A stretch of DNA of 64,000 nucleotides from Elephas maximus indicus. Taxonomy: Eukaryota > Chordata > Mammalia > Proboscidea > Elephantidae. The notes beneath the pieces are model-generated. The model did no database searches. It had not been told where the DNA came from and saw only the letters and a program-made list of their open reading frames with translations. The stretch is from the NCBI RefSeq assembly GCF_024166365.1, contig NC_064842.1, positions 20,679,001 to 20,743,000 on the forward strand, in the 5' to 3' direction. Below, piece by piece: positions 34,788-61,732 of the stretch. The number at the start of each line of letters is the position of its first letter. The first letter of the stretch is position 1. The translations under genes were made by a program, and so were the position numbers.

Positions 34788-34890
34788 CTTGTACCTCCTT
34801 TTAAGCCTCAAGTAACATCTGAGACAGACACCAGATATTTTGATGAAGAATTTACAGCTCAGACAATTACAATAACACCACCTGAAAAAT
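34788..34890 (+). CDS. AKT3: AKT3 exon: AGC-kinase tail with turn motif (residues 418-451)
   Basis: The 103-bp exon begins after a good pyrimidine tract (ttcctttcttcctatAG) and ends ...GAAAAAT before gtaagt. It encodes LVPPFKPQV...YFDEEFTAQ...[15 protein letters not shown] is the conserved tail segment of AGC kinases that docks on the N-lobe. The threonine in TITITPP corresponds to the turn-motif phosphosite (Thr447 in human AKT3, an mTORC2 target in the family). The exon ends with one base (T) of the next codon. With the canonical last exon this becomes TAT (Tyr452); with the alternative last exon at 49668 it becomes TGT (Cys). It is therefore the branch point between the two C-termini. Confidence 0.97.
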
Positions 34891-35563: not shown

Positions 35564-35593
35564 ATATATGTGTGTGTATAGATATCGATATCG

Positions 35594-39560: not shown

Positions 39561-39565
39561 AACAT

Positions 39566-39997
39566 GTTGTTGTTGTTGTTAGGTGCCGTCGAGTCGGTTC
39601 CGACTCATAGCGACCCTATGCACAACAGAATGAAACACTGCCCGGTCCTGCGCCATCCTTACTTAAAATCGTTGTTATGCTTGGGTTCATTGTTGCAGCC
39701 ACTGTGTCAATCCAGCTCGTTAAGGGTCTTCCTCTTTTCTGCTGACCCTGTACTCTGCCGAGCATGATGTCCTTCGCCAAGGACTGATCCCTCCTGACAA
39801 CATGTCCGAAGTATGTAAGACGCAGTCTTGCCATCCTTGCCTCTAAGGAGCATTCTGGCTGCACTTCTTTCAAGACAGATTTGTCCGTTCTTTTGGCAGT
39901 CCTGGTATATTCAGTATTCTTCGCCAACACCACAGTTCAAAGGTGTCAGCTCTTCTTTGGTCTTCCTTAATCATTGTCCAGCTTTCACAGGCATCAA
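39566..39997 (-). mobile_element. Second RTE copy, same orientation, abutting the first
   Basis: Starts with a new 3' tail (gttgttgttgttaggtgccg). The minus frame gives LTYFGHVVRRDQSLAKDI. CAACAT at 39560-39565 and 39998-40003 is a possible target duplication. It is less diverged than the first copy. Confidence 0.85.
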
Positions 39998-40099
39998 CAA
40001 CATAGAAGCCATTAATAGAACATTTTTCCTGGCATGTCACATTTTATCATTAACTCTGTTATTTAAAAGAATATGCATAATTTAGATGTGAGTAGCACT

Positions 40100-40198
40100 G
40101 TATATGATCATGAGGATGGCACAGAGCCAGGCAGCATTTTGTTCTGTTATATATAAGGTGGCTGTGAGTTGGAGCCGACCTGACAGTGACTAACAGCG
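40100..40198 (+). mobile_element. RTE tail in the opposite orientation
   Basis: gaggatggcacagagccagg, then gtggctgtgagttggagccg. Short plus-strand end. Confidence 0.75.
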
Positions 40199-40282
40199 AA
40201 AGTTCCTGTATAAACCCATTAATGTCTTTAAAGGTTAAAAGGACCGTTTCTGTATTGAGACAAAGATGTACAGGAAGCCGAC

Positions 40283-40478
40283 ACACACACACTCAGTTCT
40301 GACTCCTGGAGACCCCGTGTGTGCGGAGTAGGACTGTGCACCACAGGGTTTTCAATGGTTCCTTTTCATAAGTAGATCTCCAGGCCTTTCTTCTGATGTA
40401 TCTTTGGGTGTGTTAGAACCACCCCCCTTTTGGTTAGAACCCCCAGTGCTCAACCATTTGCTCTGCCCAGGGGCTCTA
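40283..40478 (-). repeat. AfroSINE (long form), diverged
   Basis: tcagttctgactcctggaga, ataagtagatctccaggcct, then ctctgcccaggggctct. Confidence 0.75.
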
Positions 40479-41335
40479 ATAGGAAGCCCAGACATTGTAG
40501 GAATTTCCATGCTGGGCATTCCCTGTGAATAAATTTGTAGACCTGGGAAAGTGTGAAGTGGGGTGGGCTGCTGGGCTCTGGATGGTTCAGGAACGTGAGT
40601 GTCCCGCAGAGCATCTCTGTCTAACCGGGCCTACCACAGCCCAGGGTAGTGTGGCCTTGCTACCTTTCCCTGCTCGGGATCTCGGAGTGGGGCAGGCAGA
40701 TCAAAGAGCTTAGCAGCGTGTGTGAAGCCAGAGATGGGCAGCAGTATCTCTGCAGGCCACCCCGTCCAGCGGTGAGCAGCCCACTGTGCCCTCCTGGGAG
40801 CACTCCTGCAGTGTCTCCAGCTCAGCTGAGCACCTGGGGCCCAGAGTGCCCTGTTGTAGAACAGCCTCTGATGATTAACTGCAGCTGCTGGGTTTTTCCA
40901 GGGCAAAGGGGCAGTGTTTTTAGTTTGAAAGTCCCTGGATATACCCTAGATCCGCTTAAGGGGCAGATTAAAGGAGAACCAGTGAAACCATGAACTGTGA
41001 TTACATTTAACGTAGTCTTTTCTCCTTGCGGCCTGAATAATGGTGCTGGTTAGAAACCATTGCAGCTCTCTAACTGCTAAAACACAGACGTTTTGTTCAT
41101 AAAAGTCCGCAGTAGTAACATTAGTTAGCAATTGTCTTCCCACTTGCCACCTTGCTTTTACAAAACAGAATGGAGTTATTTTTTTAGAACAAACCAGCCG
41201 TTAGGAAGGCGAGATGTTCCATTTTCTACAGACAGCTGCAATAGCGTGCCAGATTGCCCTTGCTGGTGGTAACTAATTGAACAGCTTTTGGAATGTGCTG
41301 TCTCGTGTTATATCCATTAATGGGCCTCTGCCTTC

Positions 41336-41456
41336 CTCCTGCGGGAGAAAGATGTGGCAGTCTACTTCCGTAAAAATTTACAGCTGTGGAAACCCAATGG
41401 TTTACTGTCTTACAGGGTCACTGTGAGTTGAAATCGACTTGACAACTGTGGGTTGT
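41336..41456 (+). repeat. AfroSINE 3' half
   Basis: Starts in the middle segment (gggagaaagatgtggcagtc); tail cagggtcactgtgagttgaa. The tRNA-like head is absent. Confidence 0.8.
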
Positions 41457-41881
41457 GTTACAGAGAAATGGGATTTCTTTGAGATATGGTAGCTTTACTG
41501 CCATATAATTTCACTTGTTAAACGTGTTAAGAAACTGAAGTTTCTTGGACCCAGGGATTTAGACATAGAGTTGATGACTGTTTTCTTTTTCCAGATGTGT
41601 TTTTAGGCAGAGTTCTCTTCATTGTCATCGTTGTTCTCTGTGAGCATCCTCTCAGAGCAGGGACTTTCCTGTGTGTATACTGATGGGTACCATGTTCTTC
41701 AGTCTCTAACTCAGAGGCTCAGCTGCAGGGTCAGGTGTCACTCACAGTGGGCGCCCCCCTACCCCCATCCCGCTGTGGGCCTGTGTGGACCCAGAGGGGC
41801 CTGCCTCAGTGCCTGTCCCAGGATCGTGGCACCATTTGGTATAGGGATCTTATACTTGCCCCTCACCATTATCAAGTAGTT

Positions 41882-41992
41882 TCCATGGGAGAAAGATCTG
41901 GCAGTCTGCTTCCATAAAGATTTACAGCCTTGGGACCCAGTGGGTCACTGTGAGTCAGAATCAACTCGACAGCAGTGGGTTTTGGTTTTTCA
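41882..41992 (+). repeat. AfroSINE 3' half
   Basis: Same truncated form as the copy at 41.4 kb: gggagaaagatctggcagtc, tail gagtcagaatcaactcgaca. Confidence 0.82.
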
Positions 41993-44137
41993 TTACCAAG
42001 AGAGAAGGAAAAGACAGGGAGCTGAAGTGAGAGAATGCTATATTGGCCTTAAAAGACTGTCAAGGTATGGGGTGTTCACATGGTTATTTATGAAATTCGG
42101 GTTTTTTATATTCAGAAATGTGATTAATTTGTTACTGACAGAATGAAGACTCTTAATTTTTAGCTCCCATCCAGCCACAAAGCAATCAGTACTCCTTGTG
42201 TGAAAGGAAATCCAGCATCCTCCCCCGCCCCCAACCCCACCAAGAGCCTGACTGGCTGGGTCACCCCGGGAGCCAGGCAGCATCCCTCCCGCGGACGAGG
42301 CAGGACAAGGACAAGGACCAGGCTTCCCCACACATGCGGTCCTGGGCTCTGCATGTTTGAGGTGCAGAAACACACCCAGCAAAACAAGACTGTTAATGGG
42401 GAAAACTGTTGCTTGGAAATGTGATTGACGTATGTCAGAATCTGCACAGTACGATTTCAGCTGCCTTTTCTATATTTCTAGAGAATTTTTTTATGCTGTG
42501 ACTCAGCAGCCGATAGGCCATCATCCCCTAGCTCCTCCTGTTCTTGCTGTTGCTAAAAATATTGCTGAAGGTATTTGATCTAAAAGATGCATGTGGTTTA
42601 CTTGGTACAGAACCAATACTTTATAACGAGGTAGAGATTTCCCTAAAACTCAATACTATCGAGAAATGCCAACTACCACTGCTGTGGTCTGCTTGCCGAA
42701 GGAGAGAGGTGCTCATGGTTCAGTGGTTTTCGGGGAGCAGGGAGCCACCGATGCTTTTTGGTTGATTGATACCCACCTAATTCAGTGCTATTTTCTGATA
42801 CATCAGAGGCCACAAATTTTGGTTACTTTTAACTTGATCACATTTCTTAGAAACTTTTGTATTAAGAATAGAATAGCAAGAAGAAAAGAACAGAAATGTT
42901 TGTTCCGTACCCTTCAGACAAATGCAAAGCACTATCCTTCGTTGTATGGCAGGGTCAGTATCCACAGAATAGCAAGATCTGGCCTGTATTTTTTCTCCCA
43001 TGGCATGAGATTGGTGCTTGTTAGAGAGGTTGGGAAATTAAAAGATTTGCTAATGTATTTTCTGTATATATTTGAGGAAATAGAATTTTTTGCTTGATGA
43101 AAAGAAGGTTGGGTATTTGAAAGACCTTTTCCTTTATTTCTGCTGTTAGGACGGCGTACAGTTAGATGAGCTTGGAGCGAAGCAGGAGAGATGTAAAAGG
43201 GAGCGCCTCCCCCATGCGAAAGTGAGCCCTGGAGGGCGACAGGGACTTTGCCCGGAGCTGTGTCCCCGAGTCTGAGTTTGCAGAGCTTCTCGTGATGAGG
43301 GACTGAACAGATGACCACCTATGAGGAAGGGCATCCTGACAGGGCAGCATTTAATCAGCAGAGCTGTTGTGGGAAAAGGTTGGGCGAAGATTTGTAATCT
43401 TTGAACTACAGGAAAACAGGGAAGGTGATGGGGAGGAACAACTTCATTGTAAGCAGCCTCCTCTTTCGTCCTATCACGGCTCTTCTCCCTGTTTGTTTCC
43501 TAATGGACTAGGACTTCCATGCTGACATCCCTCCCTCTTACCCTCTGTCCCAGCATTAAGTTTTATCATCAGAAGATTGGGAACAGGAAGTTAAGGTAGA
43601 TGTTAAATGTTGAATAGAGACAAAATCTTAAAAACACAATCAAGGACACAGATGAAATGGGGTAACAGAAACCTTGATTTTGCATTTATATCTAAAACAC
43701 CATGAAGTAAAAGCATTTGAAGACATTTAGCAATGAATTATCTATACACACTGTGGGTGCCTTAGCACCCAGGACTTCCGTAATTTTAACAAATTGTAAC
43801 TTCATGAAATGGAAGGCTATTGAAGATGGTGTGTGCCTCCTTATATTAAAATCCTGTTTTCTTCAGTATTATTTTTTCCCGTTTCATTACGTCTTCAAAT
43901 TTTAGTGTCTTGAAAGAGATAATTTGATAGTATTATTTTCTCGTAGACCACAGGTTTATGAAAATGAGAAATTTTTAAAGTAAATGTAATTACTGTATGT
44001 TCTATTGATAAACACAAGTTTATAGGAGTTATCAGCCTCTGTTCATCTTTCCTATATTAGCAGTTAGAAGAATGTAGACCAGAGATAATATTGGCAAAAA
44101 AATATGTAAGATTAAAATAGCTGTTTCCTGCCCACAG

Positions 44138-44223
44138 ATGACGAGGATGGCATGGACTGCGTGGACAATGAGAGGCGGCCACATTTCCCTCAGTTTTCTT
44201 ACTCTGCAAGTGGACGAGAATAA
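44138..44223 (+). CDS. AKT3: AKT3 canonical last coding exon: hydrophobic motif and stop (residues 452-479)
   Basis: After the acceptor ttcctgcccacAG the exon completes Tyr452 (T|AT), continues [18 protein letters not shown] and FSYSASGRE, and stops with TAA at 44221-44223. FPQFSYSA is the AGC-kinase hydrophobic motif; its serine is Ser472, phosphorylated by mTORC2 for full activation. Joining the four exons gives exactly 163 residues (317-479) with no gap, so this is the functional gene and not a processed copy. One substitution from the human protein I recall is visible: Met460 reads as Val here (GTG). The exon runs directly into a long repeat-poor 3' untranslated region. Confidence 0.97.
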
Positions 44224-44831
44224 TTGTCTCATTCTGCTGCTTCACTGTCATCCTAGACTTATTACTGAAAACGGTTCCTGGACATCACCACCAGTCCTAG
44301 CTCTTACAGATAGCAGGGGCACCTTCAGACGTCCCAGACCAATCAAGGGTCTTCACCCCTAGCAACCTTTCACACACATGAAAACACACATATATGCAAA
44401 CACACTCGACCTTTTGTTTTTGCATGAAATTGTATCTCAGTCTAAGGTCTCATGCTGTTGCTGCTACTGTCTTACTATTATAGCAACTTTAAGAGATAAT
44501 TTTACAATCTTTCGAAGTCATGAGTCCACCATTGTTCATTTGTGCCCCAGTTGTCATCTTCTGATCTTTTTAGGTTTTGTTTTCCCTAACAGTGAAGGCT
44601 GGAAGAGAGACATTGATTCTAGGTACATTTTTAAACTTTCTAGAAGATAAAAACTAACTAGGCTAAGAAGATTTAGTGTGTAATCCACAGCAACGTGGAT
44701 GGGTGGTGATGCACGTATGCAGACTGTTAGTGAAGCCATTCAGTTCAGTGCATGAAGTAGGGATTGAGCGCTAAGATCTGGCTGGAATTCATTAGGAAGC
44801 ACTTGAGAAAAGGACTGAACAACCGCTGATA

Positions 44832-44862
44832 AATATATATATATATATGTATATGTATATTT
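44832..44862. repeat. (AT)n microsatellite in the AKT3 3'UTR
   Basis: Run of AT units with GTATAT variants. Confidence 0.85.
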
Positions 44863-45474
44863 TTAATTCCTATTGGATACTCCAGAGGAAGCCTGTATCA
44901 CACACGGACATCTAGACTTCACGGGCAGTCATGGACAAACGAACATTGTCCTACCAAGAAATGAAGGCATATGCACAGCAGAGAGAGGGTCTCATGATAC
45001 GATTCACGCCAGAGAGCATTTTTCCCCCTGTGCTTGGAAACGTTTCTCTCTTCTTGATATTTATCACCTCTGATGGCTGAAGAATATAGACAGGTATGAG
45101 GATCCTGCTTTTCACCAAAATTTGTACACCAAGGTAGACAGACAGGTGTTTGCCTTATTTGTTTTAATTTTCTACTTTGAGTTTTCCGTGAATTAGCTTT
45201 CTCTCAGATGTTAAAACTTTGAATATCCTTTTATGGTTTTGTTTATATTGCAGTAGTATTTATTTTTTAGTGATGAGGAGTGTATGTCACGTTAGCAAAT
45301 GCAGCTCCAACTTACACAAGATAGACTGCATGCAGCTTATTTTGACCCATGTGCAAGGAATGTACACGCCGATGAGACTCACGCACTTTTTCTCCTCTGT
45401 AAAAAAATCTTGATGAGGCTCTGAAATTGTACATAGTGGTTAGAATTTGGCTTTGAGAGAAGAGATGCTGTCGT

Positions 45475-45523
45475 TTAACCCCTCGGTGCTGAAAATCCCC
45501 AACTGTCCATGCCAAGGGGTTAA
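45475..45523 (+). other. AKT3 3'UTR hairpin 1
   Basis: The arms TTAACCCCTCGG (45475-45486) and CCAAGGGGTTAA (45512-45523) are complementary at 11 of 12 positions around a 25-base loop. This is the best-formed of three related foldbacks in this UTR. Confidence 0.7.
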
Positions 45524-45890
45524 TGAAACCAATGGATGTTGATACGTGCTCAGTTGAGAACTGATCTGTGATGAAGGCCTGGCAGCACAGTGCGGTGGAA
45601 AAAACTGAGACCTGAACGATGATGAGCAATGAACTTTCCTTGGCAATATGAACACATCTCGAGTATTTACCGAGTAGGCAGTAAAGGATTAGAACCTGGT
45701 GTGTTTAGTCTGATCATGGTACACTTATCACTGAATTAAGCCATCAGGGAAAAAAACAACAAAAAAAGAACACCTCCAGCTTTCCTTTTTCTGTACATAC
45801 TCATGTCCCCCAGTTCCAACCTTTCTCACTGACGGGGGACATGTATGCAAACCTCATCTTTCTCCTTCATTAATGATGATCTTCAGATTA

Positions 45891-45948
45891 AACCCTTTGG
45901 TGCTAGGAGCTGACATTTTCCAAAGCAGCCTATGAAGTCCAAGGGGCT
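45891..45948 (+). other. AKT3 3'UTR hairpin 2, containing a miR-29-type site
   Basis: The arms AACCCTTTGG (45891-45900) and CCAAGGGGCT (45939-45948) pair with one mismatch and one G-U. The left arm runs into TGGTGCTA, an eight-base match to the miR-29 seed. Confidence 0.6.
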
Positions 45949-46138
45949 GGGGGGCCATTCTTGCAGCAAGCAGGCGGCAACCCGGACTCGCTGGAGTGAC
46001 CATGGAAATGTGTTTTAGTTCAGCTATCTGACAGCTCCCCAAATGGAAGACTACAGCATTACGTAGTATTATGATTGCATTGTACGAAAGAGCAAGTGAC
46101 TTTTTAAGTAGGATGAATCATATTCATATGCAGATGTC

Positions 46139-46225
46139 TTAGCCTCTTGACGCTGGAAGTGTGGGTTTATAGATATGAAACCACTGCTGGCGGTGGGCAG
46201 GCCACTGGGACTGACAGGGGGTTAA
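46139..46225 (+). other. AKT3 3'UTR hairpin 3
   Basis: The arms TTAGCCTCTTG (46139-46149) and CAGGGGGTTAA (46215-46225) pair along all 11 positions if G-U pairs are allowed. The outer arm sequences resemble those of hairpins 1 and 2; the loop is longer. Confidence 0.55.
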
Positions 46226-47697
46226 AGGGCATTTTATTAAGGCAGCTAAGACATATTCAGACGTAGATTTTGTCCTCATTTTTCATATTTTTATCTGAGT
46301 GAAGTTCATCCTTAATATTGAGTGGGAAGTTACAGTAAGTGGTAGTTCACTCTTGCACATATAGCTCACCTTTTTTTTTTTTTTTAAACTTGGAATTATG
46401 TTGAATGTTTCACTTTGACAAGAAAGTAGACCGGAAGGTGTGTCCTGTAAGTTGTCTTGCATCCATCCATTCTATGAGAAAGAAGCAGATAAGAGGACAG
46501 AAGAGAGCTGAGACTGGCTGATGATCAGAGTTTTCCTTCCTTCAGAGGGAAAGTGTAACACCACACACTGAGCACATAGCTTTTGTTTTTTTGTTGTTGT
46601 TGTTTGTTTGTTTTGTAATCTTAAGGTGATTCCATGACAGTGGCGAAGGACACTTTCTAAGATTAATGACCACCGCTGACAGTGCCCTGGGCTGGCCACT
46701 CCTCACAGCTGGCTCTCCATCCCCAGCCAAGGCCTGGGGCTTGCTTGGCACTTGTCCCCTCGAAGAGCCTGTGAGCATCACAGAAGTGTTCTCTTGGCTT
46801 AGATTCTTTGAATCCCTTACTTTTGCTCCCAGATCTCAATCAGCTGGCGTGGAGGAATAATAGAAAAAAATGTGTGTCGAGGGAGATTTCTGAAACTTCC
46901 TTGTAATTTGCCCATAGCTGTAGTTGTGGATTCTGGCAGGTGGAAAGGCCCGAAACCTGGAATCATTCCATCAGAATACAGTTCAGACTTTGCGGACTCC
47001 AGCTTGTACTAACTTTCATTGAGTTTGCCCTATTGTAATCACACAGCCATCTTGGAGGAATTGGCCATTTCTGCTTGGATTTTCGACAGGGTTGCTCACA
47101 GCTTTGCTTTCTACACTAATTAGCGTTATTCCAGTATTGTTTTCCATTTCCCCATAACTGATTTCCGGCTTCTTAAAGCTGACTGTTCTTGCAGGGGCCA
47201 CTTGCTTATCCTAGAGTACAAAAGTAAGGGCCTTCCTTACTAACTGCAGGGTCTATATATTACACCTCAATGTACACACTTTGCTGCTACTGTTCGTACT
47301 GTCTACAGTAGAATTTCCTTATCTTGCTCCTGATAGTGCATTACAGGCAAGCATGAAATGTAAAGTATTTATTTAAATAAAAAAGAAAACCTCTAAATTG
47401 GTAATTGAATTACCTCCCTGTAGCTTTATAGTTTGTGACATTTCTTGACCTTGCTAGTTCTTTCATTAGATCCGTGCAAGATCTAGTCATCTGGTTAAGG
47501 ATTTTAAGCAGACGTGACTATGAACCCAAGAAACCGTATTACTATTGGTCATACTAAAACTGTTGCTTTCCTTGAGTCTATGACCCACAAGGATGTGAAA
47601 TAACCACGAGAACCTGTTTTTGTACACTGTACATCCTTAGTATTTTTACACGTATATGATAGGGATGCACATGATTTTCCTTCGTACAGACAGCTGA

Positions 47698-47703
47698 AAT
47701 AAA
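47698..47703 (+). terminator. AKT3: AKT3 candidate poly(A) signal AATAAA
   Basis: An AATAAA hexamer in a repeat-free 3'UTR context, followed by a TTGTTGTGGG-type GU-rich stretch about 30 bases downstream. It is a likely but unproven cleavage signal for the canonical transcript. Confidence 0.5.
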
Positions 47704-48762
47704 GCACTATGTCAACCTGCTACTTCTCTGCCTATTGTTGTGGGACCTGGTTCTGTAATCGCAGAAAATTCAACGTTATTCTTTACTGGCACGAATATAT
47801 ATTTTCAATAGCCCCACCTGGTGTTAACCTACCCTCTATGAAATGTGATAGGAAACTATGTTAATTCCCGGTAGCCGAAAACACACAGGGGGTTATTTTA
47901 TTACTTCAGTGAGATTGCACTAGCGTGGTGGTACAGCGTTGAGGAAGGGGCTACTTCCCGACCTCTCTGCACTGGATTCAGGGCATATCTTCTCTGAAGC
48001 CGGCGGGGAGCAGGTCTCCTTGGAGATTCTTTCCGACCCTAGTAATCCTCGCAGCAGACGGTTTGGACCAGAACTCTGAAGGAGTGTAGCTCCTCAGTGA
48101 TGTCTTCCTGATTCGTACCGCTCCGCACACTCCTTCCTTAGAATGCATTTTAAAGACTTCACGGCAAATCGGCAGACTTAGACATGGGGAATAGATGAGT
48201 CGGATGAGTGCGCTACAATCTGGTCGACCTGGAATTCTTCAGGATGGGGCCTGTTTTCCAATTGTACCTCACATACCAACGTAATCTACTGGTTTAGAAG
48301 CTTGGTTTCACTCCTGTGACGAAGGCAGGTGAAGGAACGGCGTTTGGGTCCCAAGTTAGCCAGGCATATATGTGTCAGGCAGCCAGATCGGAGGGTGTTC
48401 TTCACATGCTGTTCTCTTAGAACCACTGGGGGACAGTTCCAGAATAAAGTGACCTCTTAATTTCTTTAAAGGTGCTATTTTTAGAATATCATATAATTTA
48501 TTCACAGTATTCCAAGAGCAGAATTAAGGACAATTAAAATATCTTAGGTGACAGTCTTTATGTCTAGCACATTTTTGATGAAGTCAAAAACTTCTGAATC
48601 TGAAGAGTTCTCCCTGTTTCAGGCTTGAACCTTTTCCATGCTCTAGAGACTCAGATGGGCTCTGTAATCATGCCACTGCCTCCCAAGCCTAAGTCACATG
48701 GATTTTGAGAAGCAAGGCTGAGCATATGGTAACATCAGATCTATGTCGAAATAATAATAATA

Positions 48763-48783
48763 CTGCTGCTGCTGCTGCTGCTG
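48763..48783 (+). repeat. (CTG)7 trinucleotide run
   Basis: Seven perfect CTG units preceded by TAA units. Short; shows no sign of expansion. Confidence 0.9.
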
Positions 48784-48954
48784 GTAGGTCGCTGGCTGGG
48801 GCAAATCGCCTGTGGTCAGTGACGTGTCCTGATGGCAGCCTTGCCTTTAGTCTTTTAGTGTCATGCTCAAAGACAACACAACATTTTCATTGTCCGTTTT
48901 TATTACTTTAAAGCATTTGCGGGCTTAACTCTGTATAGTGCAAATACTATTTTA

Positions 48955-48960
48955 AATAAA
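48955..48960 (+). terminator. AKT3: Distal candidate AKT3 poly(A) signal
   Basis: AATAAA in the sequence ttttAAATAAATAATGACC. The DNA from 47.7 to 49.0 kb remains free of interspersed repeats, which fits a longer 3'UTR form, but nothing in the sequence proves use. Confidence 0.3.
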
Positions 48961-49398
48961 TAATGACCTCTGTACAGATACTTGATATACTCAAGTAAAT
49001 TTTCTAATTTCCCTAAGTACATGTTTTTAGGCTCTTCTCAAGTATAGCATATTGAAGAAGAAATCTGACCACAGAGCCAAAGATGACGCTCTTTTTCTTT
49101 TCTTTTTTTGTTAATGGAGTTGAGAGAATAATGCCTAGTGTTTCCCAGTGTCTCTTTATTGTGCACATCCTGGCAGGATAAGTCACAATGGACTCTTACG
49201 GGTTGTTGATAAAAGGCAAATAAAGTTGAAGGATGATACAAAAATCACGAAGAGGGAAGCAAAATGAATGGCAGAAAAAAAGTTGATTTGATCCTTATTA
49301 CACTTTGGCCTAGCTAAACTATGTGCCTTTTTGGTGTGTTTTGTTCATTACCCCAAGATAAAAAGAAAACAGTATAATTCAAGTCTTTAAAAAATTCA

Positions 49399-49404
49399 TT
49401 TATT
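49399..49404 (-). terminator. SDCCAG8: SDCCAG8 candidate poly(A) signal
   Basis: TTTATT on the plus strand reads AATAAA on the minus strand, about 265 bases past the SDCCAG8 stop. That spacing gives a 3'UTR of roughly 290 bases, close to what I remember for the human last exon. It lies inside the AKT3 alternative intron. Confidence 0.65.
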
Positions 49405-49667
49405 GAAACTCGTATGTGCAACAGCATATAAATGGGCAGAGTTTAAAGCATAATAGACTGCAAATCATTTCTGAAAACATACACCAGGAGATAGGTCTTC
49501 TCATTGAACATCAAACTTCAGACCCAGCCCTTCCAGACGCTCAGCATCCAGCACCACTGCCATCTGAGGCGCGTCACGCTGGAAAGGTCGTGGTGGATTG
49601 TGGCGTATTAAAAGCAGATGACTGTAAATCTCTCTGTACATGATTGACTTCACTCTGTTTCATCCAG

Positions 49668-49735
49668 GTCAGCAATCAGATTGAGGCATGCTGGGTAACT
49701 GGAAAAAAATTATAATAAAAAGTAAGTTTAAATAT
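49668..49735 (+). CDS. AKT3: AKT3 alternative last exon (isoform-2 type), reading frame cut short by TGA
   Basis: An acceptor ttcactctgtttcatccAG is followed by an exon that, joined to the base left by the 34788-34890 exon, reads Cys-Gln-Gln-Ser-Asp and then TGA at 49682-49684. From memory, the human short AKT3 isoform (465 residues) ends CQQSDCGMLGNWKK. Here the second Cys codon position is TGA, and the bases after it still read GMLGNWKK. The C-terminus would be CQQSD, about 456 residues in total, lacking the hydrophobic motif as the human isoform does. A poly(A) signal AATAAA lies at 49714-49719, so the exon is probably about 65-70 bp; the 3' end is estimated. The exon skips the canonical terminal exon 5.5 kb upstream and overlaps the SDCCAG8 last exon on the other strand. 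Whether it is used in this species cannot be seen from DNA. Confidence 0.75.
49669..49698 (-). CDS. SDCCAG8: SDCCAG8 last coding exon (final nine residues and stop)
   Basis: On the minus strand a pyrimidine-rich acceptor (attttttttccAG) is followed by TTACCC... encoding LPSMPQSDC and TGA (stop at 49669-49671). This is the C-terminus of SDCCAG8 (NPHP10/CCCAP), a coiled-coil protein of the centrosome, centriolar satellites and ciliary base. It joins in phase 0 to the exon at 61606-61732 to give ...LRSQ-LPSMPQSDC, which agrees with the human ending I recall. The exon continues as 3'UTR toward lower coordinates, with AATAAA on the minus strand at 49399-49404. The whole coding part lies inside the alternative AKT3 last exon on the opposite strand. 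It is too short to find as an ORF; the call rests on the splice signals and on the match to the upstream exon. Confidence 0.9.
   Translation of the reverse strand, partial: LPSMPQSDC
49714..49719 (+). terminator. AKT3: Poly(A) signal of the AKT3 alternative last exon
   Basis: AATAAA 46 bases into the alternative exon, in an A-rich run. On the other strand the same bases are part of the pyrimidine tract in front of the SDCCAG8 last exon acceptor. Confidence 0.6.
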
Positions 49736-50888
49736 ATCTTCGTCAATGTGACTTGTCTTCTCATTTACTGGTGTAGTCACCTCTTACCACTTCAGTTTTT
49801 GGAGAAAAAATTTCTGTTGCTAAAAATGTGGAAACTATGTAAAGGTTTGTGCCTCATCTTGACCACAGATCAGAGCCCTTGTCACATATTAGTAATAATG
49901 ATTTTAATGCTTTAAATCTGAAAACAACCTGTATTCCAGGCATTTTTTGTGCCTTTTAAATAAGGACAGTATGGTGTTAGGACATGGCCAGAGAGCCGTG
50001 TTTTCCCTGTCCGGGAACAGAGAGGCTCATTTATGCCAGAATCTCTTTACCGGACATTGATTCAGCCATGCAGTGGGTGAAGCTGGAACAAAAACAGACA
50101 TGGGCCGTGTGCCTCTGGAAGTCCCTGGTGTGACCTGCAAATCTTTAGCTGTAAAACAATTTGTTGTAACATATATAAAGGTATTTTTTATGCAAAACCC
50201 TGTTTGCTGGGAGAGGGGATTTGGTGTACATGATCTCTTAGTTATGTTTAAAAACTAGGTCATAAAAATTGGGCCAGGGAAGGGGGATCATAATTTAGGG
50301 TAGTAGTATGTTACCTGCTGCTGCGGATGTGGCTATTCAGATTAGTTTTTACCACGACAGAAGTCATGTTAGCAACCATTGGAACTAGTTATACTCTACA
50401 TAACAGTTAACTGAGTGCCTGTCATGTAGTGCATGGAAATGTAAGTAAGATAGAGTCCTTGCCCTCTGGGAGTGGAGAGGGGAGCTCAGATGACTTTGAT
50501 CAAACCCCATTCTCACTTAACAGGTCAGAGTGCGGTGTAGGATCGAAGGGCAAACCTGGTCTCCGTCAGCTGGGGATCATGTTCAAGAAGTGGGCTGGCA
50601 CTCCCCAACCCCATTTCCTAAACTAGAATCACAGGACGACTCTTGTCTTCCCAGAGTAAGCCACGATTACTTGGGGATTTCCAAGAGAACAATGAATGAA
50701 ACCAAGAGATTTAGAATTCATGCCAGAGAAATACATGAAAACCAATCTGTTGCCTTCAAAAAAAAAAGAAAAGGTAATATTTAAATACCTTCTAGTGCAT
50801 GCGACACTCATCATGACTTTTTCATGACTCAGCCTGTAGGAGGATGGTTTCACACAGGGTAATTAGAATATGTGTACAGCCCCATCTC

Positions 50889-51091
50889 AAGGAGCCCTAG
50901 TGGCACAGTGGTTAAAAGCACTCAGCTGCTGACCAAAAAGGTCTGTGGTTTGAACCCACCAGCAGCTTAGAAGGAGAAAAGTGGCAATCTGCTTCTGTAA
51001 AGATTATAGCCTTGGAAACCCTGTGGGGCAGTTCTACTCTGTCCTGTAGGGTTGTTATGAGCTGGAATCAACTTGATGGCGGTTTGGTTTC
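50889..51091 (+). repeat. AfroSINE (long form)
   Basis: Head ggagccctagtggcacagtg, middle gcaatctgcttctgtaaaga, tail gagctggaatcaacttgatg. Short flanks CCATCT on both sides may be the target duplication. Confidence 0.92.
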
Positions 51092-51149
51092 AGTTCCATC
51101 TAGCACTGAACTAAGGTAGGGGCTAGAGCAAAAGGGCACGCTCCCTCGT

Positions 51150-51735
51150 GAGTGAATATGTGCTGGGGAGATGGGTGGACGAATGAATGTGTGATGTGTG
51201 CTGGGGAGATGGTGGACGAGTGAATGTGGTATGACGTGTGCTGGGGAGATGGGTGGATGAGTGGACGTGTGGTGTGACGTATGCTGGGGAGATGATGGAC
51301 GAGAGGACATGTGGTGTGACCTGTGCTGGGGAGGTGGTATATGAGTGACTGTGCTGTGACGTTTGCTGGGGAGATGGTGGACGAGTGACTGGTGTCACGT
51401 GTGCTGGGGAGATGGTGGACAAGTAAATATGTGGTATGACGTGTGCTGGGGGGATGGTGGAGAACTGAATATGTGGTGTGACGTGCTGGGGAAATGGACG
51501 AGTGGATGTGTGATGTGTGACGTGTGCTGGGGAGATGGTGGATGAGTGACTGTGGTGTGACTTGTGCTGGGGAAATGGTGGACAAGTAGATGTGTGATGT
51601 GAGGTGTGTGCTGGGGAGATGGTGGACAAGTGGTGTGACGTGTGCTGGGTAGATGGTGGATGAGTGACTGTGGTGTGATGTGTGCTGGGGAAATGGACGA
51701 GTGAATGTGTGGTGTGACCTGTGCTGGGGAGATGG
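51150..51735. repeat. Minisatellite, about 15 units of 36-46 bp
   Basis: Units are built on gtgctggggagatggtgga + cgagtgaatgtgtggtg + tgac, with gctgggg recurring roughly every 40 bases from 51162 to 51724. Units vary in length (some lack gtggtg or have gaaatgg for gagatgg). Long open frames on both strands here are caused by the repeat and have no coding evidence. Confidence 0.9.
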
Positions 51736-52554
51736 CTGGATCCTCTCTCTTCCTTCGCACCCACAGGGGCCTTCTGTTCTCTGGGCCCTTCCTCGCCAGC
51801 TGCAGGGAGTCTGCTCTGGAGCCCTGCCACTGCAGAAGGGGTGCCCTCTATCCTCAGTAGAATACACCCGGCCCAGAGGCTGCCAACTCGATTTTACCAT
51901 CAAACACAGCATCTCTACCTAGAGCATATTAGCCTTTCCGTCTTGACCCAACTGACGCAGTTCAGTTCTGTCAAATGACTGGTTTCAGTGATGCCCTACC
52001 TCGCTCCCCGGGTTGGCCAAGTAAGGACAGCTACCTGGTGGCTGGTGCTCTGGAAACCCAGTCTTACTTTTTCACCTTACAAATTCAAAGATGTCTTTGG
52101 ATACAAGCATAAACCACAACAGGCAAATTTCAAAAAAAAAAAAATTAAACTTTTGATAGAAAACACATCCATCCACGCACGATACAAAATATTTCTAAAG
52201 ACCTGAAGTACAAGTAAAATGTAGTTTTGTTTTTAACTAAGCTCCAGGAAAACTGGCATTTCTCATAGTCTTGCAGTGCCTGAGGGATCCAGGGCCATCT
52301 AGTAATTTATCAGTGTGCGATCCTTTCCCTGGGGACACCAGGCTCTGCTGAAGCTGTGACCTCTCCTTCTGCGGATCCACGTGAGAGGGACACAGGTGTG
52401 GGCCCTCCCCATGAGCCCATGGCATTGACCTGGACTGCTCTCCTGCAGCCAGTCAGCTTTTGCTCCCTCTTCATCAGTTTTCTGTTTTATTTGGTTTTGG
52501 TGTGAAGGCTTGAATTCCTCCTCACTTTATATTGTGGTGCTTTACTGTTCATTG

Positions 52555-52615
52555 TTCGACCCCAGTGCCTGCAACTGTGCCTGGCCCATGGTAAGCACTC
52601 AGTAAGTGTGACGGA
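52555..52615. repeat. MIR/L2 scrap
   Basis: ccagtgcctgcaactgtgcc and ggtaagcactcagtaagtg are typical of ancient mammalian repeat ends. Confidence 0.45.
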
Positions 52616-52632
52616 AGAAGTCACTCTAGTAT

Positions 52633-53122
52633 GTCATTGTCATGGGTTGAATTATGTCCCCCCAAAAATATGTGTATCAAATGGGCTGGGCCATGATTCC
52701 TGGCATTGTGTGATTTTCCTATATGTTGTAAATCCTGCTTCTATGATGTTAACGAGGGAGGATGGGCGGCAGTTGTGTTAGGGAGGCAGGACTCAATCTA
52801 CAGGATTGGACTGTGTCTTGAGGCAATCTCTTGAGGTATAAAAGAAGGGAGCAGAAAGACTGGGGACCTCATACCACCAAGAAAGCAGCACCAGGAGCAC
52901 AGTGTGTCCTTTGGACCCATGGTCCCTGCACCTGAGAAGTTCTTCAACCAGGGGAAGACTGAATACAAGGACCTTTCTCCAGAGCCGACAGAAAGCCTTT
53001 CCCTGGAGCTGACGCACTGAATTTGGACTTGTAACCTATCAGACTGTGAGAGAATAAATTTCTCTTTGTTAAAGCCATCCATTTGTGGTATTTCTGTTAC
53101 AACAGCACTAGATGACTAAGAC
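52633..53122 (+). mobile_element. Solo LTR, MaLR (MLT1/MST-like) family
   Basis: 490-bp LTR beginning tgggttgaattatgtccccc and ending ttgtggtatttctgttacaa / gatgactaagaca, the typical MaLR ends. It has a TATAAAAG box (52837-52844) and AATAAA (53053-53058). No internal retroviral sequence adjoins, so it is a solo LTR. The subfamily resembles one common in elephant DNA, from memory. Confidence 0.8.
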
Positions 53123-53990
53123 AGACCTTGTTTTGTCTGCGAAATGCAGGCATGCTAAAATAATGTCACCCTCAGTTTGCTGAATCTTTAGTAAAGACCT
53201 TCTGAGTGCTTTCCGTGCTGATTCCATAGCCTGCCAGTGATAATGGACACTTCAGGTACTGTCAAAATCTAGCATTTGGCATCTGAGAAGCAATCTGCCT
53301 TTACTTCTTAGGGATGCTTATTTCCAGAACACTGTTCCAGGGTACACTGACCATGGTCTTGCTGTACAGGACTGATGAAAATGCCACATCCACAATAGCC
53401 TGTCAGAGCTGCGGTGCGAGCCCTCAGCCACCATCTTTCTGTCCTTCTGCCTTTTACGTGTGGCCAGGCCCCTTGCTGTGGCTCCAGGGTGGAGTGGCCA
53501 CATCTGCAGTTGTGTGGTGCTCTCAGATCACAAGGGGACCAGCAGGCGCCCTGGCAGCTGCTCTGGTAGAATACTGTCCACAGAGGACATAAGCACTCCC
53601 TGTCTGCAAGCCCACTATTGCTAACCCATTTTCTTTTTTCTCATTTTAATTCCTATCAGGGCACCTCCACACACCCGGACTTTTGTGCCTATAATTTATT
53701 TCTGAAGTTTGACTTTAAATTCGGAGTTTAAAAAATGAGTTGCTCTGGGTGACCTGAATTGTTCCCCAGGCAACCACACTGTGGGGTTGAGCCTTTTCTT
53801 CTTTTCTGTTTGTTCCTAAGCAGGCCTGAAAGGCGACACCCTCCCAGGATATTGCTGCCCTACCTCACCTCTATAGGAAAGCTTGCAACCTCAGGCCTGA
53901 CCTGCTGTCCCCTTGTTTGTCTGTGCATCTCCACCCTAGCCTCTTAGTAGCCCTTCCAAATGGAATATCCCCCTCCTTCTTGCTCTCTCT

Positions 53991-54193
53991 GAAAAAAAAA
54001 AAAACCAAACCAGTTGCTGTTGAATTGATTCGATTCATGGAACCCACGTGCGGTTTGCTGTATGAGGTTTTGAAAAGGCTGTGACTTTCAGAAGCAGATC
54101 ACCAGGTTTTTTTTCCATGGCACCTCTGGATGAGTTCAAACTGCCAACCTTTCAGTTAGCAGTCAAACACTTAACCGTTGGCAGTACCCAGGG
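53991..54193 (-). repeat. AfroSINE (long form)
   Basis: Minus copy after an A run: ccaaaccagttgctgttgaa through ttaaccgttggcagtaccc. Confidence 0.88.
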
Positions 54194-54249
54194 ATGCTGT
54201 CTTGTTCTCTGCCTTGCTCCTCTGCATCTTTTGTCTCTGTGTTGCCAGG

Positions 54250-54275
54250 TTAAAAAAAAAAAAAAAAAAAAAAAA
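54250..54275. repeat. Poly(A) run
   Basis: More than 20 consecutive A, ending aagagg. Low complexity. Confidence 0.9.
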
Positions 54276-57200
54276 GAGGTCCTGTTCCTTGTGCCTTTGG
54301 CAATAAAGCATCTATTTTTAACTAGATGGGGCAGAGCCCCTCCTCCACCTCCATCTGGAACATTCCAAAATCTTGCCCTGAGTTGACTGAGCTGCTCGGT
54401 AGCCACCAGTACCTTCTCTCTGTGGCTCTCCAGTCATGTTTTGGGAGCCAGGACTACTGCCCTGCAGTTCTCCCAGCCAGGGCCAGCTCCAGGCCACACG
54501 AGGCTGTGGCAGTTCCCCTGGGAGAATGGCAGCCACCTCACCCATTGGGATAGCTCCCACTCTGTGCAACCTTTTACCACAGCCAGTGGCCCATGGAATT
54601 TCTCTAGAAGAAATTCTTTCCCTGTCCATTTACTTCTCAGTTCAAATCACCTCATTTCTCTGGGCCTTATTTTTTCATCTCTACAAAAGAGATGTTAAAT
54701 TATTCACCTTTCAAGGCCACAGTACTCTCAGTACCGATCCTGTTGGCTTCATGATCATCATTGCTGGGCTCTGGGTAAGGTGGGGAGCTCCCCTTTAAAG
54801 GGTGCCCAGTTCTAGTAGTAATTTTTTTTCTTTACCAGAAACCAATTGATATGGAAGCCAAAAAATGAACCTGACGTGGTACAGAGCTAAGATTTACATG
54901 CAGGCAACCTGACCTCAAAGTCCAGGGTCTTAATGCCCATTCTGACCAGATGAATGAGAGAGCACCTAAGCAGCCAGATTTGATCTTTGTGGAATTAAGT
55001 AGAGGTCAGATTTGGAAAGTAACCTGGAATAAACAAGCCAAGTGAACTATGTAGTCACTGATTTGTTTCAGAGAAAGGTGCCCCAACCAATTATCCTGTG
55101 AGACTTTGTGAAAATGAGGCCTTAAGTGTGGACGCTCAACTGTGAGAAGGCAGCCTTCTCAACCAGCCCTCCAGGCCCAAGCCAGCTGCCGTCTGTGGGT
55201 GTAGCTCTGCCTTTCTTCCTCCCACACAAGTGACAGACACTCCGGCGGGGCTCCCTGCCCTCCCTCTGGCTCGGGGTAGCCTCAGTGCCTCTCTGGGAAT
55301 CTGCCTGTTGCCAGCTGCAAAGCGGGGCAGGAGTTCATGGCAAGGTCACCACACACCCAGCAATTCATTCTTCCTCCTAACTGCCAGGCCAGACTCTGAC
55401 AATGGGAGCTCTGCACAGAGTTCAAAGCCTGGTTTCCCTGGACCAGGGGGCCTGGCTGGGCTGTCTGGGGATCCCGAAAAGCAACAGAACTGTGGAAGCT
55501 GCGGAATTAAAAGGCAGGCACAGGAAAGGCTGCAGGCAGGCAAGAAGCTAGAAGAGGATGATTCTTCGGGTCTCAGTAAAATAGCATCTCAGCTGGACAG
55601 GGGACTCTCCACCCAGGGGGACAGCACCCCACCACACACAGGAGGAAATGCCAGCACCGGGCCTGCCCTTTGCCGCGCCTTCTCGTCTTCCCAGAGCGCA
55701 GGCAGTGTTCCTTCTGCAACTCGGGGAAACCCAAGTTAGTAGTCCTCCAGCGTTCTGGAGTCACACAAGTCACAATGGTGTCCCCTGCACACCGGCAGGT
55801 GTCTGTGTTTCATGTGGGCCATGTTTCCATGGTAAATAGATTTTAAGAATTCCCAAAGGACAGACAGTGTCACCAACAGCACAGAGCAGAGCCTCTGGCT
55901 GCCTCGTGTTTGAAAGTGTTAAAAATAAAGACAACATTGACATTTGGGGTTGTAATGTGACGGAATTACAGTCTTTTAAAGGCAAGAACCACTTATCTAC
56001 ACTACATGTAATATTCAGTGTTTTGTTCACTTGTCTAATTGGATTAAAATATTTAGCTCCCTTTAAAATCTTGATTGTGAATTTATATAGCAAAATGTAA
56101 TGTCTGACTTCGGAAGCAATGAGTGGAGCGAATGTATCTGAAGCAATATAAAATTCAATTTATTTTTCTTCCGTGATTCTTGTTCTGAGATTATTCAGTC
56201 TTGGACAAAATGAACTGTTAAAGGAAGAGCAAGTTTGGCTTAAATGAAGCCCTCAGTGCTTTTCAATATTAATTATGCACAAAGCCCTCCTTTGAAAAAA
56301 AAAAGACCAACTTAAACTGCTGTTTGAGTTGTATGGGGAAGTTTCTCTGAGGGTCGTTAGAAACGCGGTTCCAGGGGTCTTATGTCATTCTGCAGAAACA
56401 CTCCAGCAGCAGGGAGTTAATGACATTTTAGCTGCATATGTTCAAGTTTATTTAAAAAAATATGCAAGTCACTTTGGTTGACAGTGTCTTGTACACAGTT
56501 TTGAAAGAATCAGGGCAAACTTTAACAGAGTCAGTTTTTATTTGAAAAATATTTTCTGGGAATGTATCAGTGTTTATTTTTGAGACTGACAATTCCGGTG
56601 AAAATCAGGATAAAAACAAAAAAACAACAATTTGGTTGAAATAAAATTGTTTGTTTTCCTCTATTTAGAATTCTTTCCAAAAAATCTTGGTTCAGGAGGA
56701 GGCTTTTTAATTTATTTTATTCAGTGTATTTGCTGTTCTATTCAAGCACCATCTGTCTTGCAGGTAGCTAACTTTGGGGAAGCTCCTAAGTCAGCTGGGC
56801 AAAGAACCCAGGGCTCTGGCAGGGACCACACAGCAAACTAGGCAAACACCTCTATGTCCTGACGTGGTGGGCCGCAGCCACTCATTCTTGCTCTTCCCGA
56901 GCCTGTGCACCCTCACTTGAGCTGCCAGACTCCCACTGCCTCCTTCCTCCTTTTGCTCCAGGTCACCCACTGGCCTTTCCTCCCTAGATCACTGTCTGTG
57001 TCTCTGCTTCTTGTGCTTGTTTTCAGCTCTATTCTCTGAGTCTTTTGGTGTAATGAGATAACGTTGACAATCTTGACTATAATCACATATGGCTGCTGGA
57101 TCCATGCACAACTTTAAATCAAATTAAAAAGGAAATTCACTGCCAAGAATGCTTAAAAGTCATAGGTCCAACTGATTAACCATTGATAAGTCAGTTGCAG

Positions 57201-59659
57201 ACTCTGTTTCTGAACTGTAAAAGTGATTCATACGGAGGGGCTAATGGGGAATCGCTCCCCAGGCTGAGCACTGAGGACTGAGCCAAACGGCCTGCTCAGG
57301 GTGATGGTTGCTACACAGTGCAAACAAGTTGCAACCATATTTGTCACCAAATGCATACATAAACAAAAAAAAAAAATCATCTCAATGCTTAAGAGAATCC
57401 TCTCAGTGTACAGATAATTTGTGTCTCCCCTCCCCAGATGCCATCCTCCCCAAGAAAAGACTCTTATTGCCTCACCAGCTGGCTCCACCCTTCCTGGCCA
57501 GATGTTTGAGCCTCCGGGCTCTGGGTCACAAACCCCTGACCCTCCTACCAGCTGTCAGACCTTGCCTAACCTCCCCTGGGAGGCAAGTTCCTCGCCACCC
57601 CTCACGCCACCAAACCAGACCCCTCCTCGCTCCCTAAGAAGAGGCAAGAGTGTTAAGAGTGTTATGTTCAACCTAGCCCTCAAGCACAAAAGCTGAGGGG
57701 AGAGTGCCCATCTGGAGACGGTCACCTGACTGAAGGGGAGGTACGGAAGTGTGTTTGGGGTAGAGCTGAGTAAATGCGTTATCGTCTCTATTTCTCCTCC
57801 AAGCCATTTTATGACATTTTGAAAGCTGTTTTCTAGAAGTTTCTTTTTCCCCCAGAGTGAGGCAGATTAAAAAAACCCTGTTTTTATTCAGCCCTAAATT
57901 AAGAGCAAGCCAAAGCATAAGCCTGGAGCTTAGTGGTTAGCGCCCGAGCCATGCCCACTCGTCAGCCCACAGAGCCGGCCCCACTCTCACCAGGCTGGTT
58001 CACTGCCAGCAACGTCAATGAAGGGGAAAATGGGAACACTCGTGGCCAAAAATGCCACCGTGGCATAGTTACGCTTATGAGTATCTCCCTCTGCCAGACA
58101 TGTTGCAGAATTTAGGCAGAAGCAATTTAGAATAATAAAGCCTTCTAAATAGGCTAGACACTTCCTGTCAGAGGCGCAGACTAGCCCCGAGCCCTACCAT
58201 TAGTCCTCGGGGTTAAGGCAGCAGGCTTAGCTCCCAGGAGAGGACTGGAGGGAAGTGACTCAGCTTCAGAGCAGCTGCCCAGGCCAGCCAGAAAGTATCC
58301 ATTCTCTTTTGAGCATTGGGTGGCCAGAGATTTTCTAGAATTTGACATGCAAAATTGAGTTATTAAGCCTAATTCATCCAGGCTAAGAAATTAGGAGGCT
58401 TTAGCTAAACCAGCCCTAAACCAGAGAAGACGGCAGCTCCAAAAGCCGGATGCCCAAGAGCTGTACCCACAGGACAATCCCCAGAAAAGCAGTCGGTGCT
58501 GCTTGTCAGCCTGGAACCCTCAGGAGGCAATGAACTCCCAGATACCTGCTCAGTGTCAGGCAGTTGCCACATTCAACTCAAGGGCTGATTTGAAGGTTAA
58601 CTGACAATTCAAGTTTGTTCAGTGGGAAAATGCATCCCGGGGGAGGCCCGGGCACATGACAGCCCGAGTAGAGTCTAATGCAGCATTCGCGTGGAGAGAA
58701 GAGGCTTTGGGTTCAGACGCTCAGCAGAGAGCTGCAAACCTGGATCCCTACCTCTTCTTTGGACACTAGTGTTTGCTACAGAAAGCCAACATTTTCTCTA
58801 CCAAGTTTCTTTTGTCATCTTCATACGAAAATAACTCCAAATGTAATATTTGGATCTGAAGGTCCCTTTAGAGATGAGCCAGGTGGGCCAGCATCAAACA
58901 GCACAGGATGGTCAGACCGCTTCTGTCACTTCAGGCAAGGGAAGAAAGACTCGCTAGTTTTTCTGAGGATTTTTAAAATTTTTTTTCTTTTTTCAATGCA
59001 TTTTTGTGCAAATTTTGCAATTCATTTGGCAATTACCAGATTTTTAAAGCCCTGGAAGAGGTTTCTCGGCATTGATGGTCCATGTGAAGGAGGATCTGAG
59101 TGTGATGTAAAGCAGGCGGATGGAGAGTGAGAAGGCAAACCCCACACTGCAGTGATCTAGCGCAGAATGGGGGGGAGACGCCCCACAATACTAGCTCTGA
59201 GGGAAGTCGTGGCTCCTGGAGGCCCAAAGGTGTGCTCATGCCATGAGTAACAGTCCCTACAGTCGTGACAGAGGCTAGCACCTGCCTGGAGCCCCAGTGA
59301 CCCCAATGGCCCTAACCTTTGGCTGACCAGGACTAACGCTGGCTCACCTGGGGCCCTCCCACAGGACTGCCAGTGCGGCTTGGGTTCTGACCTAAGCCGG
59401 ACCCTCACAGGTGGAAGAGAGGACAGAATGCCTGAAGGCATCTAAGAAGTGGGGGTGGGGGGGAAGGGACCAGGGAGGAGTGAGCATCTTCCTGTCACCG
59501 CTGGCTCCGCGGGGTCTCTGTCCTGTCCTGTGCTTCTCCCCCAGGACAAGTTAGAGGAGAGGAGAGAGGAAAAGAGACAATCCTGACATGCCTACTGCCT
59601 ACAAGGTGCACGAAGGCCTGCCACACATGGTGCAGCTGCACTCATTTCACACTTCCAAT

Positions 59660-59775
59660 ATCACTTGGAGTTAGGTTGGTGTAATACCCACTGTGCAGAT
59701 GTGGAAAACTCAGGCTTAGAAGAGGCGTAAGAGACTTTCCCAGGGTCTCAGAACAATGACAGAGTCTGGAATCAC
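59660..59775 (-). repeat. MIR-like ancient SINE
   Basis: cagatgtggaaaactcaggc, then gactttcccagggtctcag: inverted MIR core. Confidence 0.5.
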
Positions 59776-61605: not shown

Positions 61606-61732
61606 CTGGGATCTCAGGTGTGCCACCTCCTCCGATAGGCTCTGTCTCTCCAGGAGGAGCTCGGTCTGCTTGTTGAGGAGCTGCACAGTCTGCTGCGCGG
61701 TGGCCTGCCTGTGCTTGTCCAGCTGCCTTAGC
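61606..61732 (-). CDS. SDCCAG8: SDCCAG8 penultimate coding exon (coiled coil)
   Basis: The 127-bp minus-strand exon has acceptor ttctccAG and donor CAG|gtactg. After one base finishing the previous codon it encodes 42 residues starting LRQLDKHRQATAQQ, continuing through LLNKQTELLLERQSLSEEV and ending AHLRSQ. Leucines and charged residues sit at heptad spacing, as expected for the C-terminal coiled coil of SDCCAG8, which is a scaffold at the centrosome and ciliary base (loss causes nephronophthisis/Bardet-Biedl-type ciliopathy in humans). In human numbering it would be about residues 663-704 of 713. It ends between codons and splices across 11.9 kb to 49698. Upstream exons are beyond the right edge of the window. 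Confidence 0.93.

What the first reader, a model, noticed from the sequence alone, without database searches (positions are those of the whole stretch)
49668..49698. The same 30 bases code for the AKT3 alternative C-terminus and, antisense, the whole SDCCAG8 last coding exon
Seen: after the plus-strand acceptor the AKT3 frame reads (T)GT-CAG-CAA-TCA-GAT. On the minus strand, after its own acceptor, the same bases read LPSMPQSDC-stop. The SDCCAG8 stop codon lies one base from the AKT3 splice junction. Known: AKT3 and SDCCAG8 are tail-to-tail neighbours in mammals, and both endings match the human proteins as I recall them. Inference: selection on SDCCAG8 constrains, or largely explains, the AKT3 isoform-2 tail.
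Basis: partly seen in the sequence, partly recalled or inferred. Interest (0 to 1): 0.85.

Follow-up and report, generated by a model that had tools for sequence, protein, structure and literature searches.

The report
AKT3 tail mirrored by neighbouring gene
In the Asian elephant, a 31-base stretch reads as the end of one gene on one strand and as a possible alternative end of the AKT3 kinase gene on the other, and a stop codon that costs the first gene nothing leaves the AKT3 version with 5 amino acids instead of the 14 seen in guinea pig.

Summary
The window is Asian elephant: the Elephas SDCCAG8 protein matches 100% and lies on a contig of the same length. On the minus strand, SDCCAG8 exon 61606 joins 49698-49669 and ends LPSMPQSDC-stop, the ending of 58 of 69 listed species. 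On the plus strand, 34890 joined to 49668 reads TPPEK-CQQSD-TGA. A guinea-pig AKT3 model ends CQQSDCGMLGNWKK, so this tail has 5 residues, not 14. The TGA hangs on base 49684, the silent third position of an SDCCAG8 proline codon. Given that SDCCAG8 ending with a TGA stop, 75% of synonymous codings leave the AKT3 frame open, so an intact AKT3 tail is weak evidence of selection on it. The tail's last residues mirror SDCCAG8's splice site and pyrimidine tract; a possible AKT3 poly(A) signal lies in the same bases. The closest known case is THRA2/NR1D1. No RNA data and no DNA of other mammals were available, so use of the AKT3 exon in elephant is unproven and the selection test could not be run.

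The parts
34788..34890 (+). AKT3 penultimate coding exon ([34 protein letters not shown] + first base of a split codon), donor after 34890
44138..44223 (+). AKT3 canonical last coding exon (coding part), [32 protein letters not shown], with the hydrophobic motif that carries Ser472
   Evidence: the name Ser472 from passages of PMC8306188
49645..49667 (+). 3' splice site for the AKT3 alternative last exon, lying in the SDCCAG8 3' UTR (tgacttcactctgtttcatccag)
   Evidence: approximate score 10.8; 13 sites scored, range 4.0 to 14.7
49668..49684 (+). AKT3 alternative tail as read in this genome: (T)GT CAG CAA TCA GAT TGA = CQQSD-stop
49684..49684 (.). Third base of the AKT3 TGA and, on the minus strand, the silent third base of the SDCCAG8 proline codon CCT
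49669..49698 (-). Whole coding part of the SDCCAG8 last exon, LPSMPQSDC-TGA
49699..49721 (-). SDCCAG8 last 3' splice site and pyrimidine tract (tttttattataatttttttccag); its complement would encode the end of the 14-residue AKT3 tail and holds the plus-strand AATAAA
49714..49719 (+). AATAAA, possible poly(A) signal of the AKT3 alternative last exon
   Evidence: sequence match only; one of six plus-strand AATAAA in 43900-50500
49399..49404 (-). AATAAA, probable SDCCAG8 poly(A) signal
   Evidence: sequence match only; one of eight minus-strand AATAAA in 43900-50500, the first past the SDCCAG8 stop
61606..61732 (-). SDCCAG8 penultimate coding exon, donor after 61606 (lower end) joined to 49698

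Best explanation
SDCCAG8 is the gene that selection keeps here. Its last nine codons, its 3' splice site and its pyrimidine tract, read backwards, happen to offer AKT3 a small last exon: a good acceptor just past the SDCCAG8 stop codon, a short open frame and an A-rich poly(A) signal. If AKT3 transcription runs through and splices 34890 to 49668, the kinase loses the canonical tail with the hydrophobic motif. The exact residues added are a shadow of SDCCAG8 and matter little. In Asian elephant the shadow frame is stopped after five residues by a TGA that is silent for SDCCAG8. The stop lies in a last exon, so the short isoform could still be made, as a kinase ending CQQSD. Shown: the sequence, both frames, the stop, the conserved SDCCAG8 ending and the coding algebra. 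Inferred: that the AKT3 exon is used at all in elephant, the poly(A) site, and that only loss of the motif matters.
For: Both splice geometries and frames. SDCCAG8 proteins: 100% match in Elephas, and LPSMPQSDC in 58 of 69 species (113 named of 120 listed of 487 matched proteins). The last exon is among the most conserved parts of the C-terminal 132 residues (4 of 124 nine-residue windows, that one included, are as conserved). The guinea-pig AKT3 model tail CQQSDCGMLGNWKK aligns to window 49670-49708 with a stop at Cys. Enumeration: AKT3-frame residues 3, 4, 7 and 10 fixed by the SDCCAG8 peptide; frame open in 75% of codings with a TGA stop. Splice variants of AKT3 lacking Ser472 are described for human cancer cells (PMC8306188 and PMC6873690, passages).
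Against: No RNA evidence in elephant. The one alternative AKT3 ending seen for an elephant (Loxodonta isoform X4, P0132) uses another exon, at 36165 in this window. Guinea pig, and human by recall, share all 14 residues, including Cys at codon 6, which SDCCAG8 leaves open; mild selection on AKT3 would also give that. In 8 of 69 species (two foxes, giant panda, two Canis, raccoon dog, two pangolins) SDCCAG8 itself changes at the proline, so SDCCAG8 is not absolutely constrained. The 120 listed SDCCAG8 proteins are the best-scoring ones, and the score includes the tail, so tail conservation is overstated by an unknown amount. The acceptor ranking uses a matrix from general knowledge.
Confidence: 0.72

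Rival explanations
1. Both peptides are under selection in most mammals, and the elephant lineage lost the last nine AKT3 residues secondarily.
For: A guinea-pig model has all 14 residues and human is the same by recall; the last SDCCAG8 exon is unusually conserved, as double constraint would give.
Against: Most of that conservation follows from the SDCCAG8 peptide and its splice site. Three of the five SDCCAG8-silent point changes that alter the AKT3 frame hit codon 6, and that is the codon that is a stop here. Where SDCCAG8 changes its proline (8 of 69 species), the AKT3 glycine changes in every coding tried.
Confidence: 0.17
2. The plus-strand exon is not used in elephant: the acceptor is a relic or never mattered there, and AKT3 uses other alternative endings such as the exon at 36165.
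For: The Loxodonta AKT3 isoform X4 tail maps to 36167-36253 behind its own acceptor. Only 1 of the 200 proteins listed carries the CQQSD tail.
Against: The acceptor at 49668 scores above that of the canonical last exon (10.8 against 6.7), and an AATAAA starts 46 bases after the exon start. The database is clustered and one search listed 120 of 733, so tails of other species can be hidden. The isoform is known in human (recall; for a variant without Ser472).
Confidence: 0.35
3. The TGA is read as selenocysteine or read through, since it replaces a cysteine codon.
For: A UGA aligned to a Cys codon is a usual mark of a selenoprotein (general knowledge).
Against: No Rfam family, SECIS included, reached its gathering score in the window; 49100-51100 at E up to 1 gave only one weak microRNA match. 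After the TGA the frame has no stop until 49913, far beyond the AATAAA at 49714.
Confidence: 0.01
4. The A at 49684 is an assembly error or a private variant of the sequenced animal.
For: One genome only; no second elephant DNA was reachable.
Against: A single substitution in DNA with one match in this genome is an unlikely kind of error (general knowledge), and the change is silent in SDCCAG8.
Confidence: 0.05

Closest known systems
THRA (TR-alpha2) / NR1D1 (Rev-erb-alpha) antisense coding overlap
   Same: Convergent genes; an alternative last exon of one gene lies antisense to the last coding exon of the other; the alternative product loses a functional C-terminus; an in-frame stop cuts the alternative frame in one lineage (opossum) while the neighbour stays conserved (PMC3047299, abstract and sections 3 and 12; PMC4569393, abstract and sections 6 and 12).
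   Different: There the overlap is long (the opossum sequence is truncated by almost 100 residues), TR-alpha2 is abundant in eutherians, and about 60 bp lie between the 3' splice site and the NR1D1 stop codon. Here the exon-exon overlap is 31 bp at the coding end, the splice site is one base from the stop codon, and nine residues are lost.
AKT3 isoform 2 (PKB-gamma 1, AKT3-S472; the equation of these names is recalled)
   Same: Same splice geometry, same first five tail residues, loss of Ser472.
   Different: Tail CQQSD instead of CQQSDCGMLGNWKK. The 14-residue form was seen here in a guinea-pig model (P0122); for human it is recalled.
Other gene pairs with coding-coding overlap (surveys)
   Same: Such overlaps are catalogued: a table passage of PMC2330155 gives 108 (human) and 82 (mouse) CDS overlaps in its first two columns. 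Neither AKT3 nor SDCCAG8 occurs in the main text of that paper or of PMC6746723.
   Different: Those are catalogues (supplements not seen); a codon-level account of this pair was not found in the searches made.

Membership tests
THRA2/NR1D1-type antisense coding overlap | Convergent neighbouring protein genes | tested here: met
   AKT3 exons on plus, SDCCAG8 exons on minus
THRA2/NR1D1-type antisense coding overlap | Possible alternative last exon antisense to the neighbour's last coding exon, in the right splice phase | tested here: met
   T|GT split codon; exon from 49668 over SDCCAG8 49669-49698 (sequence only)
THRA2/NR1D1-type antisense coding overlap | Bidirectional coding across the shared segment | tested here: not met
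   TGA at 49682-49684; only 14 bases code on the AKT3 side
THRA2/NR1D1-type antisense coding overlap | The alternative mRNA is made | not testable with these tools
   No elephant RNA data; a guinea-pig protein model exists (P0122)
AKT3 isoform 2 | Shared body up to TPPEK, without the hydrophobic motif | tested here: met
   reading; the canonical motif is in the exon at 44138 that would be skipped
AKT3 isoform 2 | Tail CQQSDCGMLGNWKK | tested here: not met
   QQSD*GMLGNWKK
Overlap under selection in both frames | AKT3-frame codons conserved beyond what SDCCAG8 imposes | tested here: inconclusive
   Codon 6, left open by SDCCAG8, is a stop in elephant and Cys in guinea pig; no multi-species DNA

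The most novel reading that the evidence does not exclude
AKT3's alternative tail has never been selected as a peptide in placental mammals. It is a 'shadow exon' in which the parts mirror SDCCAG8: the residues mirror its codons, the Trp-Lys-Lys end mirrors its CCAG and pyrimidine tract, and the poly(A) signal lies in the complement of that tract. Its only function is to remove the hydrophobic motif.
Probability: 0.45. Interest if true: 0.55.

Novelty: new member of a known kind. Interest (0 to 1): 0.42.

Why it matters
AKT3 variants without Ser472 are studied in cancer, and a conserved 14-residue tail invites the belief that the tail has a function. This locus shows how such conservation can be borrowed from the gene on the other strand. 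It also names two base positions (49684 and 49670 here) where a change that is silent for SDCCAG8 stops the AKT3 frame, so the two explanations can be told apart by counting bases across mammals.

Tried and rejected
Selenocysteine at the TGA: rejected. DNA of other mammals: a 26-base pattern over the shared segment found nothing in viral contigs or genome contigs, as expected of collections without mammals. More AKT3 tails from the protein database: a full-length search (120 listed of 733) and a short-protein search (80 of 80) gave one CQQSD tail, guinea pig; the database is clustered, so absence means little. Peptide strings of both tails in the paper library: no paper. A recalled lead, rat AKT3 of 454 residues: none of the ten papers listed of 28 holds that phrase. 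A published account of this coding overlap: none recognised in the titles and abstract starts (26 listed of 27; 10 of 11; 20 of 210); the passages read of PMC5812623 say 'tail-to-tail' and those of PMC6395382 and PMC5414975 do not describe it. A paper on the AKT3 variant without Ser472 (PMC7501878) is not held. Retrocopies of the spliced AKT3 variant: not answered. A composition-based exon search gave candidates that one search replaced. One acceptor (ERDDLMAAL, score 4.0) was probably picked one AG too far downstream; it is kept in the range quoted. In one search, 7 of the 120 listed proteins without a species name were dropped before the species count; in the column counts one protein per species was used.

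Full report
Identity of the window. The window is G000:C32:20679001-20743000. The contig is 67,738,374 bases long. The best match to SDCCAG8 assembled from this genome is the Elephas maximus indicus protein, 100% identical over the 132 residues compared, on a contig of exactly that length. AfroSINE-like repeats in the flank agree (the repeat name is recalled).

What is there. AKT3 runs on the plus strand: coding exons near 277, near 8180, at 34788-34890, and the canonical last exon at 44138 with the hydrophobic motif. SDCCAG8 runs on the minus strand: eleven matching stretches of its protein were located in the window and the 200 kb beyond it. Its penultimate coding exon ends at 61606 and the last starts at 49698, reading LPSMPQSDC-TGA in frame. 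On the plus strand a good 3' splice site ends at 49667; the next base, 49668, is followed at once by the complement of the SDCCAG8 stop codon. In frame with the AKT3 donor after 34890 it reads CQQSD and then TGA at 49682-49684.

The next codon is a stop. In a guinea-pig AKT3 model the tail is CQQSDCGMLGNWKK (P0122, a UniRef entry). Aligned to the window it gives QQSD*GMLGNWKK at 49670-49708. The frame after the TGA also lacks the stop that ends the guinea-pig tail and runs on to 49913. So in this species the AKT3 alternative tail is five residues, and more than half of the SDCCAG8 coding stretch is not AKT3 coding.

Why the stop is free. The two frames are arranged so that third codon positions face each other. 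Base 49684 is the third base of the AKT3 TGA and of the SDCCAG8 proline codon CCT. With CCA or CCG the AKT3 codon is Cys, with CCC Trp, with CCT a stop. All four are silent in SDCCAG8. Over all 82,944 synonymous codings of LPSMPQSDC-stop, AKT3-frame residues 3, 4, 7 and 10 are always Q, S, G and G; residues 2, 5, 6, 8 and 9 vary among two or three readings each. With the stop codon held at TGA, 75% of 27,648 codings leave the AKT3 frame open; with any of the three stop codons it is 25%. Of the 16 silent SDCCAG8 point changes from the window sequence, 11 are silent in AKT3 as well; of the other five, three change codon 6, one changes Met 8 to Ile, and one (SDCCAG8 TGA to TAA, base 49670) stops AKT3 after its first tail residue. 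The QSD word on both strands comes from the near-palindrome CAATCAGATTG and is not independent evidence. The residues N-W-K-K of the 14-residue tail are the complement of the SDCCAG8 splice site (CCAG|TT) and its T run, and the plus-strand AATAAA at 49714-49719 lies in the complement of the same pyrimidine tract.

Conservation. Of 487 SDCCAG8 matches the best 120 were listed; 113 carry a species name, giving 69 species. LPSMPQSDC ends the protein in 58 (57 in every isoform listed, plus sheep in some of its isoforms). The exceptions are Q for P in two foxes and the giant panda, R in two Canis species and the raccoon dog, L in two pangolins, F or R for the final C in Tamandua and Rhynchocyon, and a different ending (LPSMPQI) in dugong. 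The nine residues have a mean majority share of 0.979, against 0.927, 0.927 and 0.964 in the three exon stretches before; 4 of 124 nine-residue windows, that one included, are as conserved. The list holds the best-scoring matches, so it favours intact tails, and the named species in it are placental mammals only. Such conservation would follow from SDCCAG8 alone or from both genes; the elephant stop argues that AKT3 residues 6-14 are not needed in this lineage. Where SDCCAG8 changes its proline, the AKT3 glycine changes in every coding tried.

Is the AKT3 exon used? Not shown for elephant. For it: the acceptor score (10.8; canonical last exon 6.7; rank 13 of 1137 AGs in 44300-60000, approximate matrix), the AATAAA, and the guinea-pig model. 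Reviews describe a human AKT3 variant lacking Ser472 with effects in breast-cancer models (PMC8306188, PMC6873690, passages); that this variant is the one with the 14-residue tail is recalled. Against it: the only alternative AKT3 ending seen for an elephant (Loxodonta isoform X4, P0132) maps to another exon at 36165.

Comparison. The closest known case is THRA2/NR1D1, where the opossum has an in-frame stop that removes the coding overlap while NR1D1 is conserved (PMC3047299, abstract and sections 3 and 12; PMC4569393, abstract and sections 6 and 12). The present pair works like a miniature of it, with the defining bidirectional coding across the segment not met in elephant.

Verdict. A real antisense exon overlap of a known kind, with a stop in this genome that favours the reading that the AKT3 tail is a by-product of SDCCAG8. 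The decisive test is a count of one or two bases across mammals, which could not be run here.

Noticed in passing
36165-36256: A second alternative AKT3 last exon: the tail of Loxodonta AKT3 isoform X4 (P0132) maps here (36167-36253, one residue changed), behind an acceptor with a long pyrimidine tract.
   Followed up: partly
51159-51740: A minisatellite of about 40-base units (14.5 copies) in the last SDCCAG8 intron, 1.5 kb from the overlap.
   Followed up: no
P0004 (Dugong dugon SDCCAG8), C-terminus: Ends LPSMPQI instead of LPSMPQSDC, as a one-base insertion in the shared segment could give; manatee has the usual ending. The DNA was not seen.
   Followed up: no
44224-49404: The last plus-strand AATAAA before the overlap (49219) and the SDCCAG8 AATAAA (49404, minus) are 185 bases apart, so the canonical AKT3 and SDCCAG8 mRNAs may end almost back to back; an ATTAAA also lies at 49607 on the plus strand.
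   Followed up: no
44138-44223: The canonical AKT3 tail reads DCVDN where most of the listed land-vertebrate entries have DCMDN and many fish DCLDN; the same V is seen in dog, beaver and horseshoe-bat entries.
   Followed up: no
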